IMG/VR virus record: IMGVR_UViG_3300042301_005288
Location: 1-22,575 of that record
Direction: 5' to 3' (one strand)
DNA length: 22,575 nt
From: a virus
Shown: one piece after another, positions 7,437 to 20,181 of the stretch
Numbering within the stretch: position 1 is the stretch's first letter
Layout: every line of letters begins with the position of its first letter
Program-made: the position numbers and the translations under genes
The notes under the pieces: model-generated
The model's input: the letters and a program-made list of their open reading frames with translations, nothing else
Databases searched by the model: none
Told to the model about the DNA's origin: nothing

Positions 7437-8201
7437 ATGAAGACTATTCGGCATAACACTTACGAAACAAACAGCAGCAGCACTCACAGCATTACGATTG
7501 ACACTGAGAACTACAAGAATGTTCAAATCCCAAAGACGATGACAATTCCTCTTGGGGAGTTTGGCTGGGAATACACGAAGTTCAACGACTTCCTTACAAA
7601 GGCAAGTTACTTCTGGACGCTTGCTCTTTACAATGAAGATGTGAATGAACGCATGATTCGTCTTGCGGCTGATCATGGACTTGACTTGCAGTTCAAACAA
7701 TCAAAGGATGACTTCTACTATGTCGATCATGGTAGCGAGCATTACTCCGATTGGGTAAAGAAGAATCCAGAACTACTGACAGACGAAGGTCTTTGGAATT
7801 TCCTCATCAACGAAAGCTGCTGGATTATCCTTGGCAATGACAACAGCTATGATCCTCCAAATTGGCGTATCACTGAAAAGGCTGCAAAGGCATTGGAGTA
7901 TGAAGTCTACATCTGTTCAGTCGCAGCTGACGATTATGTCAATGTTAGTGACTGCACCTTTAAGACCGACAAGGGAACGATTGCAGAAAACAAAGGAGAG
8001 ATTGAACATCATGTGTTTTACATGCTTGACAATGAGCGCTCTGACCGAAAATGGGATGACCCATACCCAAGTATCAAGGAAGTCAGTGATGAAGGTATCA
8101 TCATGATTAGTTATGAAAAATACGATCATAATGCGAAAGAATACAAGGTTCACCGTACACGGAAACTGCGTGCTGTCGTAGAAAAAGTGAAAAAACTGTA
8201 A
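7437..8201 (+). CDS. shared-N-terminus family protein, copy 1
   Basis: A 254-residue protein that begins MKTIRHNTYETNSSSTHS, the same 17-18 residues as the genes at 9457 and 10005. After residue 21 the body differs from the other two. It is acidic and aromatic-rich (…WEYTKFNDFLTKASYFW…, DDFYYVDHGSEHYSDW, NDNSYDPPNWRITEK) and ends with a basic stretch (YKVHRTRKLRAVVEKVKKL). No signal peptide or membrane segment is visible. From memory, similar ETNSSSTHS starts occur in uncharacterised phage and bacterial proteins; the role is unknown. The start is fixed by the AGGAGGT site. It is the last gene before promoter P5. Confidence 0.8.
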   Translation: MKTIRHNTYETNSSSTHSITIDTENYKNVQIPKTMTIPLGEFGWEYTKFNDFLTKASYFWTLALYNEDVNERMIRLAADHGLDLQFKQSKDDFYYVDHGSEHYSDWVKKNPELLTDEGLWNFLINESCWIILGNDNSYDPPNWRITEKAAKALEYEVYICSVAADDYVNVSDCTFKTDKGTIAENKGEIEHHVFYMLDNERSDRKWDDPYPSIKEVSDEGIIMISYEKYDHNAKEYKVHRTRKLRAVVEKVKKL

Positions 8202-9456: not shown

Positions 9457-9990
9457 ATGAAAACAATCCGACATAACACATACGAAACAAATTCGTCCAG
9501 CACGCATAGCATTACGATCATCAGTAAGTCCAAAGATCGCAAGAGTAAATTTCGTCGTGCTGAGATTTTTGAGGATGGGATTCTCTATCCGGGTAACCTC
9601 AATGATTCTGAAGCATACACGCATATTCCTACAGGCGAAGAAGGCTATGTCGTGAAGTGTTATACTCCTCATCAAAAGGCTGCTCTTACTGTTCATTACC
9701 TCAATGCATGTGATGAGTATGTCAACTATGATTCCAGCGGTGATATTACAACAGAGCAATATAATGCTTTCAAGCTTGAGGCGATTCGTATTCTTTCTGA
9801 ACGACTTGGTCTTAAAGAGATTCGTGACTGGGAAGACTGTAACGGATTTTATTACAGCGGTGAAAATGACGAATGTCCAATCGTCGATGTTCTTGAAGAC
9901 GGCGATCGTATCACAGCGTTCAACAAGTTTGTCACTGACGTTATCCTCAATGAGGACATGCTGATGATTGACGAAGACATCCCCTACTAA
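9457..9990 (+). CDS. shared-N-terminus family protein, copy 2
   Basis: A 177-residue protein beginning MKTIRHNTYETNSSSTHS. I chose ATG 9457 over an in-frame upstream ATG at 9409 because it restores the shared N-terminus and follows the previous stop by 1 nt. After the shared part it has a short basic patch (SKSKDRKSKFRRAE), then an acidic body (TGEEGYVVKCYTPHQKAAL, NGFYYSGENDECPIVDVLEDG) ending MLMIDEDIPY. The body shows no clear similarity to copies 1 and 3. The nucleotide sequence of the shared start differs from copy 1 at many third positions, so the peptide and not the DNA is what is conserved. Confidence 0.8.
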   Translation: MKTIRHNTYETNSSSTHSITIISKSKDRKSKFRRAEIFEDGILYPGNLNDSEAYTHIPTGEEGYVVKCYTPHQKAALTVHYLNACDEYVNYDSSGDITTEQYNAFKLEAIRILSERLGLKEIRDWEDCNGFYYSGENDECPIVDVLEDGDRITAFNKFVTDVILNEDMLMIDEDIPY

Positions 9991-10004: not shown

Positions 10005-10544
10005 ATGAAAACAATCCGACATAACACATACGAAACAAACTCGTCTAGCACGCATGCTTACAGCGTGCAAGATTTGAACCTTAAGAACCGCCCTGACCTC
10101 AACATCATTCCTGGCGATGATGGATTCATTCGAGTCGGCTTTACCGAAATGACTGAGTCGACTCCTCAGAACAAGATTGGTCATATTCTTAATTACGCCA
10201 ATTCGGTTGGTGATCAAGAATTGTTTGATCGCGTCTGCAAGGTCGTCGAGGAATTCACTGGAGCAAAACTACTTGTTAGCGCTTCAGTCCGATTGAATAA
10301 CAAGTGGGAAAAGGTTGACAATCTGCGTGAAGTCACCAATCCTAAGTTCAACTTCGACACCGAGGAAGAATACGATTGGGAAACTCTAAATGATCGATGG
10401 TATTCATTTACAAACGAATATGGGCATGGCAGCATCAATGAGTTTTGTGGAGTCATGAATGAAATTGGTCGCACCGAAGAAAACCTGAAGATCTTTATCT
10501 TCTCATCTAACCAAGGAGTACATGTCGAATCCTACTATAACTGA
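10005..10544 (+). CDS. shared-N-terminus family protein, copy 3
   Basis: A 179-residue protein beginning MKTIRHNTYETNSSSTHA. The shared DNA is closer to copy 2 than to copy 1 (the first 33 bases match copy 2). The body is different again: DLNLKNRPDLNIIPGDDGF, a helical part FDRVCKVVEEFTGAKLL, an acidic stretch FDTEEEYDWETLNDRW, and a final strand LKIFIFSSNQGVHVE. It starts after TAACACATATG without a Shine-Dalgarno sequence, 14 nt after copy 2. Its end overlaps the start of the HD-domain gene by 23 nt. The function is unknown. Confidence 0.8.
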   Translation: MKTIRHNTYETNSSSTHAYSVQDLNLKNRPDLNIIPGDDGFIRVGFTEMTESTPQNKIGHILNYANSVGDQELFDRVCKVVEEFTGAKLLVSASVRLNNKWEKVDNLREVTNPKFNFDTEEEYDWETLNDRWYSFTNEYGHGSINEFCGVMNEIGRTEENLKIFIFSSNQGVHVESYYN

Positions 10545-15256: not shown

Positions 15257-15285
15257 TTTACATTCCATGAAAAACCTGTTAAAAT
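15257..15285 (+). promoter_or_regulatory. promoter P7 of the HREDGPA gene array
   Basis: TTTACA 15257-15262, a 17-bp spacer, and TAAAAT 15280-15285. The spacer end and -10 (CCTGTTAAAATAATTCTG) match P8 rather than P3-P6, so two sub-types of the promoter exist. The leader is CTGTAAGGAAACCACCG, then ATG 15310. I see no further promoter inside the array, so all seven repeat genes probably depend on this one. Confidence 0.8.
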
Positions 15286-15309: not shown

Positions 15310-15702
15310 ATGACTCCAGTATACATTAACATCGGCAAATATGGCGACAAGCATTACTACAAGGACAAAGCAATGACGATACATCATCGTGAAGACGGTC
15401 CTGCGGTTGAATACCCCGATGGAGATAAATCTTGGTACATCAATGGAAAACTTCATCGTGAAGATGGTCCTGCGGTTGAATATGCCGATGGAGGTAAAGC
15501 TTGGTTCATCGATGGAAAACGCCATCGTGAAGACGGTCCTGCAATTGAATTTGCCAATGGACGTAAAGCTTGGTACATCGATGGAGTTTCACTAAGTGAA
15601 CGAGAATTCCTCAAGCGAACTGCTCCAGAAATCGTCTTGACGATGGACGAGATTGCATCTAAGTTTGGGATTGAAGTGAGCAAGTTGAAGATCACTAAGT
15701 AA
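15310..15702 (+). CDS. HREDGPA repeat protein 1 (3 repeats)
   Basis: A 130-residue protein: an N-terminal cap (MTPVYINIGKYGDKHYYKDK…, 24-25 residues), three 23-residue repeats each opening HREDGPA and containing a W[YF]x[DN]GK turn, and a C-terminal cap with a VSLSEREFLKRTAPE linker and the helical TMDEIASKFGIEVSKLKITK. The repeats fit the MORN_2/YwqK-like beta-hairpin type. The N-cap (INIGKYGD) is identical to that of copy 5, while the linker resembles copies 3, 4 and 7. It has the promoter-proximal leader with AAGGAA and is the first gene of the array. The function is unknown. Confidence 0.85.
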   Translation: MTPVYINIGKYGDKHYYKDKAMTIHHREDGPAVEYPDGDKSWYINGKLHREDGPAVEYADGGKAWFIDGKRHREDGPAIEFANGRKAWYIDGVSLSEREFLKRTAPEIVLTMDEIASKFGIEVSKLKITK

Positions 15703-15739
15703 GTAAGTAAGGAACACGAAACGAACACTAAAACACATT

Positions 15740-16270
15740 ATGACTCCAGTATACATTATCATCAACGAATACAGAAGTAAGCATTACTACAAGGACAAAG
15801 CAATGACGATACATCATCGTGAAGACGGTCCTGCAATTGAACATGCCAATGGAGGTAAAGTTTGGTACGTCAATGGAAAACTTCATCGTGAAGATGGTCC
15901 TGCTATTGAATATGCCGATGGAGGTAAAGAATGGTACTCTAATGGAAAACGCCATCGTGAAGACGGTCCTGCGGCTGAATACGCTAATGTAGGTAAATTT
16001 TGGTACGTCGATGGAAAACTTCATCGTGAAGACGGTCCTGCAATTGAATTTGCCGGTGGACATAAAGAATGGTACGTCGATGGAAAACTTCATCGTGAAG
16101 ACGGTCCTGCGGTTGAATATGCCGATGGGAGTAAATTTTGGTATCTCGATGGAGTGGAACACGATGAACAAGAATTCCTCAAGCGAACTGCTCCAGAAAT
16201 CGTCTTGACGATGGACGAAATTGCTGCTAAGTTTGGTATCGAAGTTAGCAAGCTAAAGATCACTAAGTAA
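15740..16270 (+). CDS. HREDGPA repeat protein 2 (5 repeats)
   Basis: A 176-residue protein of the same family, with five repeats. Its N-cap is unique in having INEYRSKHYY. Repeat 3 has lost the conserved glycine (ANVGK in place of ADGGK). The linker VEHDEQEFLKRTAPE differs from copy 1, and the C-cap has EIAAKFG where all others have EIASKFG. The gap before it (AAGTAAGTAAGGAACACG, then CACTAAAACACATT) carries no promoter. Confidence 0.85.
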   Translation: MTPVYIIINEYRSKHYYKDKAMTIHHREDGPAIEHANGGKVWYVNGKLHREDGPAIEYADGGKEWYSNGKRHREDGPAAEYANVGKFWYVDGKLHREDGPAIEFAGGHKEWYVDGKLHREDGPAVEYADGSKFWYLDGVEHDEQEFLKRTAPEIVLTMDEIAAKFGIEVSKLKITK

Positions 16271-16293
16271 GTAAGGAACCCAAAACGAACATT

Positions 16294-16824
16294 ATGACTC
16301 CAGTATACATTATCATCAACGAATACGGAAACAAGTATTACTACAAGGACCAAGCAATGACGATACGCCATCGTGAAGATGGTCCTGCGGTTGAACTTGC
16401 CGGTGGAGATAAATCTTGGTTCATCGATGGAAAACTTCATCGTGAAGACGGTCCTGCAATTGAATACGCCGATGGAGGTAAAGAATGGTACGTCGATGGA
16501 AAACTTCATCGTAAAGATGGTCCTGCAATTGAATATGCCGATGGGAGTAAAGTTTGGTACGTCGATGGAAAACGCCATCGTGAAGACGGTCCTGCAATTG
16601 AATATGCCAGTGGAGGTAAATCTTGGTTCGTCAATGGAAAACGCCATCGTGAAGATGGTCCTGCAGTTGAACTTGCCGGTGGACATAAAGAATGGTACGT
16701 CGATGGAGTTTCACTAAGTGAACAAGAATTCCTCAAGCGAACTGCTAAAGAAATCGTCTTGACAATGGACGAGATTGCATCTAAGTTTGGGATTGAAGTG
16801 AGCAAGCTAAAGATCACTAAGTAA
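16294..16824 (+). CDS. HREDGPA repeat protein 3 (5 repeats)
   Basis: A 176-residue member with five repeats. The N-cap reads INEYGNKYYYKDQAM, with two changes found in no other copy. Repeat 3 opens HRKDGPA, the only break in the HRED motif in the array. The linker is VSLSEQEFLKRTAKE and the end KLKITK. The gene lies 23 nt after copy 2 (gap AAGGAACCCAAAACGAACATT). Confidence 0.85.
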   Translation: MTPVYIIINEYGNKYYYKDQAMTIRHREDGPAVELAGGDKSWFIDGKLHREDGPAIEYADGGKEWYVDGKLHRKDGPAIEYADGSKVWYVDGKRHREDGPAIEYASGGKSWFVNGKRHREDGPAVELAGGHKEWYVDGVSLSEQEFLKRTAKEIVLTMDEIASKFGIEVSKLKITK

Positions 16825-16854
16825 GGAACCCAAAACGAACACGAAACGAACATT

Positions 16855-17316
16855 ATGACTCCAGTATACATTATCATCGGCAAATACGGAAACAAGCATT
16901 ACTACAAGGACAAAGCAATGACGATACTTCATCGTGAAGATGGTCCTGCGGCTGAACATGCCAATGGATGTAAAGAATGGTACTCTAATGGAAAACATCA
17001 TCGTGAAGACGGTCCTGCGGTTGAATATGCCAATGGACATAAAGCTTGGTTCATCGATGGAAAACTTCATCGTGAAGATGGTCCTGCAGTTGAACTTGCC
17101 GGTGGACATAAAGAATGGTACGTCAATGGAAAACGCCATCGTGAAGACGGTCCTGCGGTTGAATATGCCGATGGACATAAAGCTTGGTTCATCGATGGAG
17201 TTTCACTAAGTGAACAAGAATTCCTTCTTAAAACCGCTAAAGAAATCGTCTTGACGATGGACGAGATTGCATCTAAGTTTGGGATTGAAGTGAGCAAGCT
17301 GAAGATCCAGAAGTAA
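16855..17316 (+). CDS. HREDGPA repeat protein 4 (4 repeats)
   Basis: A 153-residue member with four repeats. The N-cap IIIGKYGNKHYYKDKAMTIL is shared exactly with copy 7. The linker and C-cap are the second allele type, VSLSEQEFLLKTAKE… ending KLKIQK. The repeats end in K[HLR] before the next HRED, and one carries a rare cysteine (ANGCKEW). The stop codon opens a run of 11-bp direct repeats in the following gap. Confidence 0.85.
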   Translation: MTPVYIIIGKYGNKHYYKDKAMTILHREDGPAAEHANGCKEWYSNGKHHREDGPAVEYANGHKAWFIDGKLHREDGPAVELAGGHKEWYVNGKRHREDGPAVEYADGHKAWFIDGVSLSEQEFLLKTAKEIVLTMDEIASKFGIEVSKLKIQK

Positions 17317-17345
17317 CGAACACGAAACGAACACGAAACGAACAC
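17316..17345 (+). repeat. 11-bp tandem repeat between array genes 4 and 5
   Basis: The unit ACGAACACGAA occurs at 17316-17326 and 17327-17337, with a partial third copy at 17338-17345. Shorter versions of the same unit occur in the other gaps of the array (for example near 15710, 16840, 17900 and 18243). It overlaps the last base of the copy 4 stop codon. Such identical gaps could help unequal recombination between array genes. Confidence 0.75.
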
Positions 17346-17356
17346 TAAAACACATT

Positions 17357-17887
17357 ATGACTCCAGTATACATTAACATCGGCAAATATGGCGACAAGCA
17401 TTACTACAAGGACAAAGCAATGACGATACGCCATCGTGAAGACGGTCCTGCTATTGAACTTGCCGATGGAGGTAAATCTTGGTTCGTCAATGGAAAACGC
17501 CATCGTGAAGACGGTCCTGCGGCTGAAGATGCCGATGGACATAAAGAATGGTTCATCGATGGAAAACATCATCGTGAAGACGGTCCTGCAATTGAATATG
17601 CCGGTGGAGGTAAAGCTTGGTACTCCAATGGAAAACTTCATCGTGAAGACGGTCCTGCAATTGAATATGCCGATGGGAGTAAATTTTGGTTCGTCAATGG
17701 AAAACTTCATCGTGAAGACGGTCCTGCAGTTGAACATTCCGATGGAGGTAAAGAATGGTACGTCAATGGAGTGGAACACGGTGAACGAGAATTCCTCAAG
17801 CGAACTGCTAAAGAAATCGTCTTGACGATGGACGAGATTGCATCTAAGTTTGGCATTGAAGTGAGCAAGCTAAAGATCACTAAGTAA
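17357..17887 (+). CDS. HREDGPA repeat protein 5 (5 repeats)
   Basis: A 176-residue member with five repeats. The N-cap INIGKYGDKHYYKDKAM is the copy 1 type, but linker and C-cap (VEHGEREFLKRTAKE… KLKITK) are closer to copies 2 and 3. This is the clearest sign that N- and C-terminal caps have been exchanged between copies. Repeat 2 has the rare AEDADG variant and repeat 5 has VEHSDGG. Confidence 0.85.
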   Translation: MTPVYINIGKYGDKHYYKDKAMTIRHREDGPAIELADGGKSWFVNGKRHREDGPAAEDADGHKEWFIDGKHHREDGPAIEYAGGGKAWYSNGKLHREDGPAIEYADGSKFWFVNGKLHREDGPAVEHSDGGKEWYVNGVEHGEREFLKRTAKEIVLTMDEIASKFGIEVSKLKITK

Positions 17888-17921
17888 GTAAGGAACCCAA
17901 AACGAACACGAAACGAACATT

Positions 17922-18245
17922 ATGACTCCAGTATACATTATCATCAACGAATACGGAAACAAGCATTACTACAAGGACAAAGCAATGACGATACGCCATC
18001 GTGAAGACGGTCCTGCGGTTGAACTTGCCGATGGGAGTAAAGCTTGGTACTCTAATGGAAAACGCCATCGTGAAGATGGTCCTGCGGTTGAATACCCCGA
18101 TGGACATAAAGTTTGGTATCTCGACGGAGTGAAACACGGTGAACAAGAATTCCTTCTTAAAACCGCTAAAGAAATCGTCTTGACGATGGACGAGATTGCA
18201 TCTAAGTTTGGGATTGAAGTGAGCAAGCTCAAGATCCAGAAGTAA
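17922..18245 (+). CDS. HREDGPA repeat protein 6 (2 repeats)
   Basis: The shortest member: 107 residues with two repeats. The N-cap INEYGNKHYYKDKAMTIR is close to copy 3. The linker VKHGEQEFLLKTAKE and end KLKIQK follow the second C-cap allele. The two repeats are separated by exactly 69 bp like all others, so removal of repeats has kept the frame. The gap before it is AAGTAAGGAACCCAAAACG, then ACGAAACGAACATT. Confidence 0.85.
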   Translation: MTPVYIIINEYGNKHYYKDKAMTIRHREDGPAVELADGSKAWYSNGKRHREDGPAVEYPDGHKVWYLDGVKHGEQEFLLKTAKEIVLTMDEIASKFGIEVSKLKIQK

Positions 18246-18274
18246 CGAACCCGAAACAAACACTAAAACACATT

Positions 18275-18736
18275 ATGACTCCAGTATACATTATCATCGG
18301 CAAATACGGAAACAAGCATTACTACAAGGACAAAGCAATGACGATACTTCATCGTGAAGATGGTCCTGCAGTTGAACTTGCCGGTGGACATAAAGAATGG
18401 TACGTCAATGGAAAACGCCATCGTGAAGACGGTCCTGCGGTTGAATATGCCGATGGAGGTAAAGCTTGGTTCATCGATGGAAAACGCCATCGTGAAGACG
18501 GTCCTGCGGTTGAACTTGCCAGTGGAGGTAAAGAATGGTACGTCAATGGAAAACGCCATCGTGAAGACGGTCCTGCGGTTGAACTTGCCGATGGATGTAA
18601 AGCTTGGTTCATCGATGGAGTTTCACTAAGTGAACAAGAATTCCTTCTTAAAACCGCTAAAGAAATCGTCTTGACGATGGACGAAATTGCATCTAAGTTT
18701 GGGATTGATGTAAGCAAGCTAAAGATCTCTAAGTAA
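18275..18736 (+). CDS. HREDGPA repeat protein 7 (4 repeats)
   Basis: The last member: 153 residues with four repeats. The N-cap is identical to copy 4 (IIIGKYGNKHYYKDKAMTIL), and its first repeat (AVELAGGHKEWYVNGKR) is identical to the third repeat of copy 4, which points to recent duplication or gene conversion. The C-cap is the VSLSEQEFLLKTAKE type but ends FGIDVSKLKISK, a variant seen only here. Unrelated genes follow after 22 nt. Confidence 0.85.
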   Translation: MTPVYIIIGKYGNKHYYKDKAMTILHREDGPAVELAGGHKEWYVNGKRHREDGPAVEYADGGKAWFIDGKRHREDGPAVELASGGKEWYVNGKRHREDGPAVELADGCKAWFIDGVSLSEQEFLLKTAKEIVLTMDEIASKFGIDVSKLKISK

Positions 18737-19106: not shown

Positions 19107-19137
19107 GAACCAAAGGAACACCAATATAATAAACAAG

Positions 19138-19689
19138 ATGAAACTAATGAAACTAATGACAATCGTTGTGGCTGCTCTTATGCTGCCTTCGTGTATTGAA
19201 GAAACCCAGCCAAGTAATGCCAGCGGCAGTGTCTCAAAGAAGACTGTTGAGGTATCAACTGATGCTGATGGTTGGACTGTAGAACAGAAGAATATTGCTG
19301 AACGACTCAAGCGTGATAATGTCGCTGGAGCAATCAAGCATCTGTATGTGATTAGTCCTTATAGTGGTCAGGTGATTCTGTATTCCACCGTGAAAGGTAA
19401 GGTCACTTCATCTGGTAAGCGACTAACTCCTACAAGTGTATCAGCGGGTGCTTGGGAGTATGTCAACAGTCCTCATAGTGGTATGGGTGTCAATATTAAC
19501 GGGCAGACAAAATACACATCAGAAGTGCTACAAGATGATGGCTCTTATGGCAGTTCATGTGAATACATTTATTGGTTCAGCTCTAAGGGAACTTTCCATA
19601 GTCACTTCTTCACTGGTGGACAAATCATCCATGTTTCTGATCAACCAATTGCTGTAAAGAACATCACTCTTAACCTCGAAGACCGCTAA
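19138..19689 (+). CDS. phage lipoprotein 1
   Basis: A 183-residue protein with a signal peptide MKLMKLMTIVVAALMLPSC. The lipobox L-P-S-C puts the lipidated cysteine at 19. The mature part starts with a Ser/Thr-rich linker (EETQPSNASGSVSKKT) followed by a strand-rich domain (KHLYVISPYSGQVILYST, SSCEYIYWFSSKG, TFHSHFFTGGQIIHVSD). It would be anchored in the host envelope. The 5' end carries a 9-bp tandem repeat (ATGAAACTA twice, then ATG), so starts at 19138 and 19147 are both possible. AAAGGAA lies more than 15 nt upstream of both. It is followed after 1 nt by a second lipoprotein gene. Superinfection exclusion is a common job of phage lipoproteins, but there is no direct evidence here. Confidence 0.75.
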   Translation: MKLMKLMTIVVAALMLPSCIEETQPSNASGSVSKKTVEVSTDADGWTVEQKNIAERLKRDNVAGAIKHLYVISPYSGQVILYSTVKGKVTSSGKRLTPTSVSAGAWEYVNSPHSGMGVNINGQTKYTSEVLQDDGSYGSSCEYIYWFSSKGTFHSHFFTGGQIIHVSDQPIAVKNITLNLEDR

Positions 19690-19690
19690 T

Positions 19691-20155
19691 ATGAAAACCG
19701 TTGTATATATTTTTCTCTCTCTGGTAGCATGTACTGTCATCATTGGATGTAGTATCCTGAGTAAAGGATGTTCTTATGTTGGCAAGGCAACTGCTGTCGT
19801 TGAACAACAACTAGATCCGGCTCTTCTCTTGAAGAAGTATGAATGGTTCAAAAATGTAGCAGCAGAATGTGATAAGAAACTTGCTGATGTTCAGGTTTAT
19901 AAGTCCCGTCTCACTAGTATGGAGAAGTCCTATGAAGGCACCTCTCGTAAGGATTGGGATCGAACTGATAAAGAACAGTTTAATCTATGGGAGCAAGAAG
20001 TTGCGGGTGTCGTTGCCAGTTATAACAGCCTAGCTGCTGAATATAATGCAGCCATGTCCAAGATCAACTATGCCTTTACCAATATCGGATCTCTCCCAAA
20101 GGGAGCAGCTGAACCATTGCCGCGAGAGGTGCGATCATATACTCTTTCCTTTTAA
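19691..20155 (+). CDS. phage lipoprotein 2 with coiled-coil body
   Basis: A 154-residue protein. Residues 1-20 form a signal peptide ending VIIGC, with the lipidated cysteine at 20. After GCSYVGKATAV comes a long helical region: VEQQLDPALLLKKYEWFKN, CDKKLADVQVYKSRLTSMEKS, the WDRTDKEQFNLWEQEVAG segment, and VVASYNSLAAEYNAAMSKINYAF. From memory the 'LLKKYEWFK … SYNSLAAEYNAAMSK' pattern recurs in small phage and bacterial lipoproteins of unknown function. It is adjacent to lipoprotein 1 (1 nt gap), so the pair may act together at the inner or outer membrane. A strong terminator follows 26 nt downstream. Confidence 0.75.
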   Translation: MKTVVYIFLSLVACTVIIGCSILSKGCSYVGKATAVVEQQLDPALLLKKYEWFKNVAAECDKKLADVQVYKSRLTSMEKSYEGTSRKDWDRTDKEQFNLWEQEVAGVVASYNSLAAEYNAAMSKINYAFTNIGSLPKGAAEPLPREVRSYTLSF

Positions 20156-20181
20156 AAGAACTCTTAAGAGCTAAATCATCG

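What the first reader, a model, noticed from the sequence alone, without database searches (positions are those of the whole stretch)
15310..18736. Seven tandem paralogs built from exact 69-bp HREDGPA repeats with fixed caps
Seven adjacent genes have 3, 5, 5, 4, 5, 2 and 4 copies of a 23-residue repeat; lengths fit 61 + 23n residues without exception. The caps stay nearly constant while the repeat number and the residues at about ten positions change. A one-promoter array of near-identical, frame-preserving, size-variable genes looks like a system for making protein variants by recombination, like other modular repeat binders. The known relatives are MORN_2/YwqK-type repeats; a phage array of this kind and its purpose are, as far as I know, not described.
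Basis: partly seen in the sequence, partly recalled or inferred. Interest (0 to 1): 0.85.

Follow-up and report, generated by a model that had tools for sequence, protein, structure and literature searches.

The report
Phage tandem array of MORN-like repeat proteins
A phage carries seven neighbouring genes for small proteins built from 2 to 5 copies of one 23-residue unit between fixed ends; similar arrays turn up in other large phages, and they look like sets of binding proteins reshuffled by recombination, with targets still unknown.

Summary
Seven same-strand ORFs (15310-18736) have 3, 5, 5, 4, 5, 2 and 4 in-frame 23-residue units; all seven fit 61+23n. The window and four contigs at least 99.9% identical to it agree, so the counts are stable at that distance. 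The fold is MORN-like by prediction (pLDDT 94.5; top PDB matches MORN1, junctophilin, radial spoke), but neither MORN_2 nor the MORN consensus is met; DUF6745 is the only Pfam family above its cut-off (5 of 7). It is not a one-off: related arrays, often with other caps and another length constant, occur in other viral contigs, four of which carry a T4-type capsid gene. Recombination is supported: a 69-bp repeat-number difference between contigs otherwise almost identical, a 157-bp tract shared between two arrays, and a 295-bp identity between genes of two arrays. Variation is concentrated at alternating hairpin positions (9, 11, 15, 17). Frequency-weighted pN/pS there is above 1 in several phages, but counting each change once gives no significant excess, so diversifying selection is suggested, not shown. 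Best reading: a recombining family of binding proteins, probably host-directed. Targets are unknown. My literature searches found no description of such arrays.

The parts
15257..15285 (+). sigma-70-like promoter candidate before gene 1 (TTTACA-17-TAAAAT)
   Evidence: consensus scan, 10 of 12 matches; total number of sites in the region not above chance
15310..15702 (+). array gene A1, 130 aa, 3 repeats
   Evidence: ORF and repeat spacing; DUF6745 29.5 bits
15740..16270 (+). array gene A2, 176 aa, 5 repeats; structure predicted
   Evidence: DUF6745 37.9 bits; AlphaFold2 pLDDT 94.5, pTM 0.79
16294..16824 (+). array gene A3, 176 aa, 5 repeats; in contig L009 this gene carries a 157-bp tract identical to array-B gene 2
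   Evidence: DUF6745 32.1 bits
16855..17316 (+). array gene A4, 153 aa, 4 repeats
   Evidence: DUF6745 27.9 bits
17357..17887 (+). array gene A5, 176 aa, 5 repeats
   Evidence: DUF6745 28.4 bits
17922..18245 (+). array gene A6, 107 aa, 2 repeats; identical over 295 bp (-5 to +289) to the first gene of array C on another contig; structure predicted
   Evidence: AlphaFold2 pLDDT 91.2, pTM 0.69; DUF6745 21.2 bits, below cut-off
18275..18736 (+). array gene A7, 153 aa, 4 repeats
   Evidence: DUF6745 22.0 bits, below cut-off

Best explanation
The array is a recombining multigene family of small MORN-like beta-solenoid proteins. Shown from sequence: fixed caps, 69-bp in-frame units, one 69-bp repeat-number difference between almost identical contigs, sequence tracts shared between genes of different arrays, variation concentrated at alternating strand positions, strong constraint on the scaffold. 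Predicted: a MORN-like fold. Inferred: the proteins are binders that use the solenoid surface, as MORN4 does with a myosin tail; each paralog has a different surface and length; recombination between units and between paralogs changes the set; and the targets are host (or competing-element) proteins that differ between strains, such as defence proteins or toxins. The constant C-terminal cap, which also ends a different-looking small phage protein family, would carry a shared function such as docking or stability.
For: Architecture 61+23n in 7 of 7. AlphaFold2 model of the 5-repeat copy matches MORN1, junctophilin and radial-spoke MORN proteins (Foldseek E 5.9e-5 for 6t68_A; VIA Z 8.4 for 7jr9_E over 123 residues, rmsd 4.8). 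MORN4's central groove binds a myosin 3a tail (passage in PMC7725318). Recombination: the second gene of array C has 4 units in L014 and 5 in L015, L020 and L021; L014's and L015's contigs differ there by exactly 69 bp plus 4 local bases, are identical over the 7,450 bases downstream held and over the neighbouring gene, and 99.8% identical over 8,000 bases upstream. L009 gene A3 differs from the window at 4 bases, inside a 157-bp tract identical to array-B gene 2 of the same contig; the junction occurs in neither copy. A6 and array-C gene 1 are identical over 295 bp. At six invariant residues the window's units never differ in codon (0.00), against 0.17-0.57 to seven other groups. 61 of 78 variable-codon pairs show all four combinations of their two commonest codons; 7 of 78 are associated at p<0.01, 6 of these within 9 bp. 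Surface: codons 9, 11, 15, 17 vary while 8, 10, 16, 18 keep their amino acid in the window; pN/pS of the first set has bootstrap limits above 1 in 7 of 12 groups. C-cap on another protein family. Other contigs carry such arrays with other caps.
Against: Counting each codon change once over ten groups gives 70 synonymous and 241 non-synonymous changes at codons 9, 11, 15, 17 with 76.1 synonymous expected (p = 0.23), which is what lack of constraint alone would give; no single group reaches significance. pN/pS is near or below 1 in L098+L097 (1.03), L129 (0.75) and L054 (0.56). In the orthologous pair L133/L138 the changed gene has 26 synonymous and 23 non-synonymous codon changes, so it looks replaced rather than selected. 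Codon homogenisation is clear only in the window: within the seven other groups the mismatch is 0.16-0.33, and window-to-L046 (0.17) and window-to-L069 (0.20) are about as low as within those groups (0.16 and 0.25). Only one repeat-number change was found among near-identical contigs, and it comes with a 4-base local change that a simple crossover between units 3 and 4 does not give. The relatives compared for variation are metagenome assemblies, in which repeats can be misassembled. No target and no expression data.
Confidence: 0.45

Rival explanations
1. Neutral accretion: tandem 69-bp units and whole genes multiply and are reshuffled by recombination; the surface positions vary because they are unconstrained, and the diversity itself has no role.
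For: Event counts at codons 9, 11, 15, 17 fit relaxed constraint (S 70, N 241, expected S 76.1). One record, of undetermined type, is packed with the family (25 of 40 non-overlapping ORFs in a 20-kb stretch), as expected if copies accumulate.
Against: Strong purifying selection on the scaffold (codons 2, 3, 5, 6, 7: S 61, N 12, expected S 21.2) and open frames in all seven copies: the proteins are used. Frequency-weighted pN/pS has bootstrap limits above 1 in 7 of 12 groups.
Confidence: 0.25
2. Immunity or antitoxin proteins: like YwqK (partner of the LXG toxin YwqJ in Bacillus subtilis), each paralog neutralises one variant of a toxin of the host or of a competing phage or element.
For: ywqJ-ywqK is listed among pairs of putative polymorphic toxins and antitoxins (passage in PMC8321402); that YwqK is a MORN_2-type protein is recalled. 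Arrays of variable small repeat proteins are what polymorphic toxin immunity could look like.
Against: None of the 15 window proteins outside the array that I scanned was recognised as a toxin; other window ORFs were not scanned. MORN_2 is not matched. This is one version of the binder model rather than excluded by it.
Confidence: 0.15
3. Scaffold or assembly proteins: MORN1-like proteins that polymerise or organise a phage structure, with repeat number setting length.
For: Closest solved folds include MORN1 and radial-spoke proteins, which are structural.
Against: Seven paralogs of different length side by side with variable surfaces; no virion gene recognised among the 15 other window proteins scanned.
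Confidence: 0.1
4. Assembly artefact of a repetitive region.
For: Several contigs start or end inside arrays (L012, L020, L022, L023, L031-L033). A published comparison found MORN-repeat proteins 37 times more often in long-read than in assembled marine data sets (PMC9238414, passages).
Against: The window and four contigs from four other metagenomes give the same seven genes with the same counts. The junction of the L009 tract occurs in neither parental copy, which plain collapse of repeats would not make.
Confidence: 0.05

Closest known systems
Canonical MORN repeat proteins (MORN1, MORN4, junctophilins, radial-spoke proteins, SETD7)
   Same: 23-residue beta-hairpin repeats stacked into an elongated sheet; best PDB matches of the model
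   Different: The repeat reads HREDGPAVEYADGGKAWYxxGK: GPA instead of GxG and no YEGEW (consensus seen in passages of PMC7725318). MORN4's groove binds a myosin tail; binding by the phage proteins is untested.
MORN_2 (PF07661) / YwqK-type proteins
   Same: Small MORN-type repeats; a 7-repeat relative in L126 scores 19.5 bits, E 0.001, under the cut-off of 29.6
   Different: No match to the window at E up to 10
MORN repeats in phage endolysins
   Same: MORN-type repeats in phages, mentioned with a reference in PMC9238414 (passage)
   Different: The cited endolysin work was not seen; the array proteins consist of repeats and short caps only
DUF6745 (PF20530)
   Same: Above the curated cut-off in 5 of 7 array proteins, through the DGPA-type stretch
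   Different: The best stretches cover 17 to 35 residues of the protein against a profile of 206; no paper in the library names it
MORN-type proteins of giant viruses (Harvfovirus, Mimivirus R871, Powai lake megavirus)
   Same: Predicted structures match with 29-51% identity for these
   Different: Whether they form tandem arrays with fixed caps was not examined
Agrobacterium jumbo phage Atu_ph07 and Celeribacter phage P12053L hypothetical proteins
   Same: The only named phages with a tblastn match (E <= 1e-5) among 50,697 records, for three different queries; Atu_ph07 has up to 9 matching places
   Different: Below 60% identity; the genome paper of Atu_ph07 has no occurrence of 'MORN', 'paralog', 'repeat' or 'duplicat' in its main text
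Lineage-specific paralog expansions in jumbo phages (e.g. about 35 zinc-ribbon copies in Bacillus phage G; passage of PMC7824862)
   Same: Many paralogs of one small protein in one large phage
   Different: Another fold; no variable number of internal repeats is mentioned in the passage

Membership tests
Canonical MORN repeat | 23-residue beta-hairpin repeat stacked in an elongated sheet | tested here: met
   Repeat spacing 23; predicted model, pLDDT 94.5, top Foldseek matches MORN proteins. A prediction, not a solved structure.
Canonical MORN repeat | GxG start, G at 10, YEGEW at 13-17 (PMC7725318, passages) | tested here: not met
   Unit sequences show GPA and KxWY instead; so called MORN-like, not MORN
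MORN_2 (PF07661) | score above the curated cut-off of 29.6 bits | tested here: not met
   0 matches in the window at E up to 10 and none in 7 of 7 proteins at E up to 1. None of 14 control genomes passed the cut-off either, so that search is a weak test.
DUF6745 (PF20530) | score above the curated cut-off of 27 bits over the domain | tested here: inconclusive
   5 of 7 proteins above, 2 below, with a short part of the profile matched
Diversity-generating retroelement target | reverse transcriptase (RVT_1) in the same genome | tested here: inconclusive
   0 of 10 records matched PF00078; it rang in 3 of 14 controls. The records may be fragments, so absence is not shown.
YwqK-type antitoxin | cognate toxin gene adjacent | tested here: inconclusive
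   No toxin among 15 scanned window proteins; small or new toxins would escape
Modular repeat binders | different paralogs bind different ligands | not testable with these tools
   needs binding experiments

The most novel reading that the evidence does not exclude
Many large phages carry a recombining repertoire of MORN-like binding proteins: lineage-specific fixed caps, a shared 23-residue module, and surface positions reshuffled between modules and genes, so that each phage population keeps a changing set of binders against variable host defence proteins, toxins or rival elements, with a constant tail that links every binder to one common outcome.
Probability: 0.2. Interest if true: 0.9.

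Novelty: new variant of a known kind. Interest (0 to 1): 0.62.

Why it matters
If the proteins are binders, the arrays would be a natural modular binder library in phages, on a MORN-like scaffold whose viral function is unknown, and they would point to unknown variable targets in the hosts. The family recurs in large metagenomic viral contigs and is nearly missing from named phage genomes, and repeats of this sort break contigs, which may explain why it has gone unnoticed.

Tried and rejected
Diversity-generating retroelement: no RVT_1 in 10 records, which may be fragments. MORN_2 membership. Plain positive selection: frequency-weighted pN/pS above 1, but the event count is not significant; kept as suggestive only. 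A first reading of the L014/L015 difference as one crossover between units 3 and 4 was dropped: the D5 codon and the 4-base change do not fit. Linking the window's phage to the 177-kb T4-like contig G007 by end overlap failed: the far ends of G004 and G008 gave no overlap in the 7 records searched each time (only a 43-base hit at 84% in G008), so 'same phage' stays an inference. The NCLDV capsid model gave 0 of 17, but nothing rang in the controls, so a giant-virus origin of records without Gp23 or terminase is not excluded. Terminase hits: 4 of 17. Literature: HREDGPA 0 papers; DUF6745 0; MORN repeat + bacteriophage 11 papers, 10 listed (passages of one seen); mixed terms 58 papers with 20 listed, 7, and 1 (listings only, and the one, a giant-virus paper with 'MORN' 5 times, was not opened); Atu_ph07 20 papers (term searches in two of them); YwqK 17 papers, 10 listed (passages of one); MORN structure 11 papers, 10 listed (passages of one). 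The VIA listing reaches Z 8.4 at best, a level the tool itself calls middling. The second model (2-repeat copy) was not searched against a library. NCBIfam gave nothing above cut-off for 7 proteins, two of them from the window.
Full report
OBSERVATION. Their lengths, 130, 176, 176, 153, 176, 107 and 153 aa, fit 61+23n for n = 3, 5, 5, 4, 5, 2, 4 in 7 of 7, and the units are spaced exactly 23 residues. The units have constant length, not constant sequence: 27 of the 28 are distinct at the DNA level. The window is a whole virus record of 22,575 bases. Other genes include PhoH, a helicase, an RNA ligase and a protein with a polyA-polymerase head domain. Megablast finds no match in 50,697 phage records.

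STABILITY IN NEAR-IDENTICAL CONTIGS. Four other contigs, at least 99.9% identical to the window over 11.5-12.7 kb (L034, L035, L036, L038), which hold L009, L010, L011 and L013, carry the same seven genes with the same counts. L012 starts inside the array and agrees as far as it goes. The array is therefore not an assembly accident of one sample, and its counts do not change at this distance.

MORE ARRAYS. About 6.5 kb to the left of the window's start, contigs G001, G003 and G008 carry a second array (B) of two genes, 130 and 158 aa. The 158-aa gene is an exception to 61+23n; its N-terminal region is altered. A third array (C; genes of 2 and of 4 or 5 repeats and a truncated third) lies on G006, G007 (177,639 bases) and shorter contigs. 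G007 has a T4-type major capsid gene (Gp23, E 5.5e-85) and a terminase. That G007 and the window belong to one phage is inferred from near-identity of their array genes; far ends of neighbouring contigs did not overlap.

RECOMBINATION. (1) The second gene of array C is complete in four contigs: 5 units in L015, L020 and L021, 4 in L014. L014 lacks exactly 69 bp, one of two identical neighbouring units, and differs at 4 bases in the next unit. The two contigs are otherwise identical over the preceding gene and spacer and over the 7,450 bases downstream that are held, and 99.8% identical over 8,000 bases upstream. (2) L009's copy of gene A3 differs from the window's at four bases in two pairs; they lie in a 157-bp tract identical to array-B gene 2 of the same contig, and the 35-base junction occurs in neither copy. 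(3) A6 and array-C gene 1 are identical from -5 to +289 (295 bp); they differ at -6 and beyond upstream and at +290, +299, +308 and the gene's end. (4) At six invariant residues the 28 units of the window use one codon each (mismatch 0.00), while the mismatch to units of seven other groups is 0.17-0.57. Within those other groups it is 0.16-0.33, so homogenisation is clear for the window and less so elsewhere. (5) 61 of 78 pairs of variable codons show all four combinations of their two commonest codons; 7 of 78 are associated at p<0.01, 6 of them within 9 bp. Recurrent mutation could also give point 5. Points 1 and 2 each rest on one metagenome contig with the rarer state.

STRUCTURE. AlphaFold2 on an alignment of 26 sequences gives pLDDT 94.5 and pTM 0.79 for the 5-repeat copy, hairpins followed by two C-terminal helices. 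The 2-repeat copy gives pLDDT 91.2 and pTM 0.69, though its five models ranged from 67.9 to 91.2. Foldseek against the PDB ranks MORN1, junctophilin-2 and radial-spoke proteins first (7 matches at E <= 0.001, best 5.9e-5); VIA-align gives Z 8.4 at best, which the tool treats as middling. In predicted viral structures the best matches are uncharacterised phage proteins and MORN-type proteins of giant viruses. In Pfam only DUF6745 passes its cut-off, in 5 of 7; MORN_2 does not match the window. The published MORN consensus (PMC7725318, passages) is not met. I therefore call the repeats MORN-like.

VARIABLE FACE. In 38 units (arrays A, C and gene B1), codons 9, 11, 15 and 17 vary and codons 8, 10, 16 and 18 do not change amino acid, the alternation expected for two strands of a hairpin with one variable face. 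Coordinates of the model were not at hand, so whether this face is the groove is not determined. I applied the same four codons to other contigs: pN/pS with bootstrap limits was 2.55 (1.78-4.40) in the window, 3.51 (2.41-4.85) in L046, 4.70 (2.58-13.22) in L060+L056+L121, 2.41 (1.65-5.17) in L126, 2.24 (1.45-4.08) in L125, 1.40 (1.04-2.02) in L135+L141, 1.30 (1.01-1.75) in L069, 1.24 (0.93-1.67) in L142+L140+L128, 1.52 (0.78-4.33) in L104, 1.18 (0.74-2.99) in L112/L153, 1.03 (0.88-1.17) in L098+L097 and 0.75 (0.56-1.02) in L129 (a thirteenth group, L137, had too few units). So the limits lie above 1 in 7 of 12. In one search four further groups gave 1.60 (L044), 1.37 (L062), 1.19 (L045+L047+L048+L050) and 0.56 (L054), none with limits above 1. 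Codons 8, 10, 16, 18 gave 0.00 to 0.33. The four codons were chosen on the window, so the window value is partly circular and the others are not; units are related, so the limits are too narrow. A stricter count, each codon change once, gives S 70, N 241, expected S 76.1 (p = 0.23) for these codons over ten groups, against S 61, N 12, expected S 21.2 for codons 2, 3, 5, 6, 7. Constraint on the scaffold is clear; diversifying selection on the face is not.

DISTRIBUTION. Six scans of viral contigs gave 25, 39, 47, 33, 12 and 2 loci, with overlap, and one of genome contigs gave 2, both on metagenome-assembled contigs. Among 69 distinct genes with the C-cap ending selected by my pattern, the window's own or its copies included, 46 fit 61+23n exactly and 13 have one residue more; 10 do not fit. 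Other contigs use other caps: L135 has six genes of 51+23n (6 of 6), L129 four of 43+23n with 5, 5, 7 and 14 units (4 of 4; for the arithmetic), L126 twelve genes in 5.9 kb. Of 17 records tested, Gp23 is on 4 (G007, G021, G032, G036) and terminase on 4 (G007, G018, G032, G036); 12 have neither and remain untyped. Among named phages only Celeribacter phage P12053L and Agrobacterium phage Atu_ph07 match three queries, besides an uncultured 642-kb record. At a syntenic place in a related virus, the two genes that follow the window's array (19123-20161) are 70.7% identical to L046:10693-11736; there they lie between one array gene with 4 units and three with 3, 2 and 2, whereas the window has seven array genes before them and none in the 2.4 kb after. 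Gene and repeat numbers therefore do differ between related viruses.

ALLELE REPLACEMENT. In another virus, contigs L133 and L138 share flanks at 94-99% ungapped identity; one array gene differs at 1 of 384 bases, the next at 58 of 426 (26 synonymous and 23 non-synonymous codon changes) with the same three units. This looks like replacement of one gene by a diverged copy.

CONSTANT TAIL. The C-cap (LTMDEIASKFGIEVSKLKI type) also ends proteins with a different head (judged by eye) on two other contigs, where they belong to a tandem family not all of whose members have the tail (L067/L105 and L068/L107). A shared tail on different heads is compatible with a common docking function, which is inference.

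MECHANISM AND VERDICT. The best reading is a recombining family of MORN-like binding proteins. Shown: architecture, recombination signatures, scaffold constraint. Predicted: fold. Inferred: binding, host-directed targets, benefit of diversity. Neutral accretion of unconstrained copies is the main rival and is not excluded. My searches found no description of such phage arrays (mostly listings and term searches in an open-access library). A long-read study reports MORN repeats 37 times more often in long-read than in assembled marine data and mentions MORN repeats in phage endolysins (PMC9238414, passages), which fits a family partly hidden by assembly.

Noticed in passing
L170:1-20000 and L169:1-12001 (record G034, 121,933 bases): An untyped viral record is packed with the family: 25 of 40 non-overlapping ORFs of at least 70 aa (49% of bases) in one stretch and 10 of 20 (33%) in another, 96 profile matches in the record. 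Neither Gp23 nor the terminase model matched it, so its identity is open.
   Followed up: partly
window 7437-8201, 9457-9990, 10005-10544: Three proteins of different length share the N-terminus MKTIRHNTYETNSSSTH and then diverge; two match phrog_28997 of unknown function, one of them weakly (E 3.5e-8 and 0.0062). A constant start on different bodies, a mirror image of the constant C-cap.
   Followed up: partly
L067:7665-9270 and L068:7620-8551: A second tandem family of small phage proteins (KVGDMFRV...SLKEDDGS...) carries the same C-terminal tail on some members.
   Followed up: partly
window 19138-20155 and L046:10710-11730: Two adjacent putative lipoproteins (by eye, from the N-termini) are conserved next to arrays in two viruses, with 70.7% DNA identity.
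   Followed up: no
L031, L032, L033 ends; L012, L020, L022, L023 starts: Contigs end or start inside array genes, so copy numbers of such arrays in assembled data may be underestimated.
   Followed up: no
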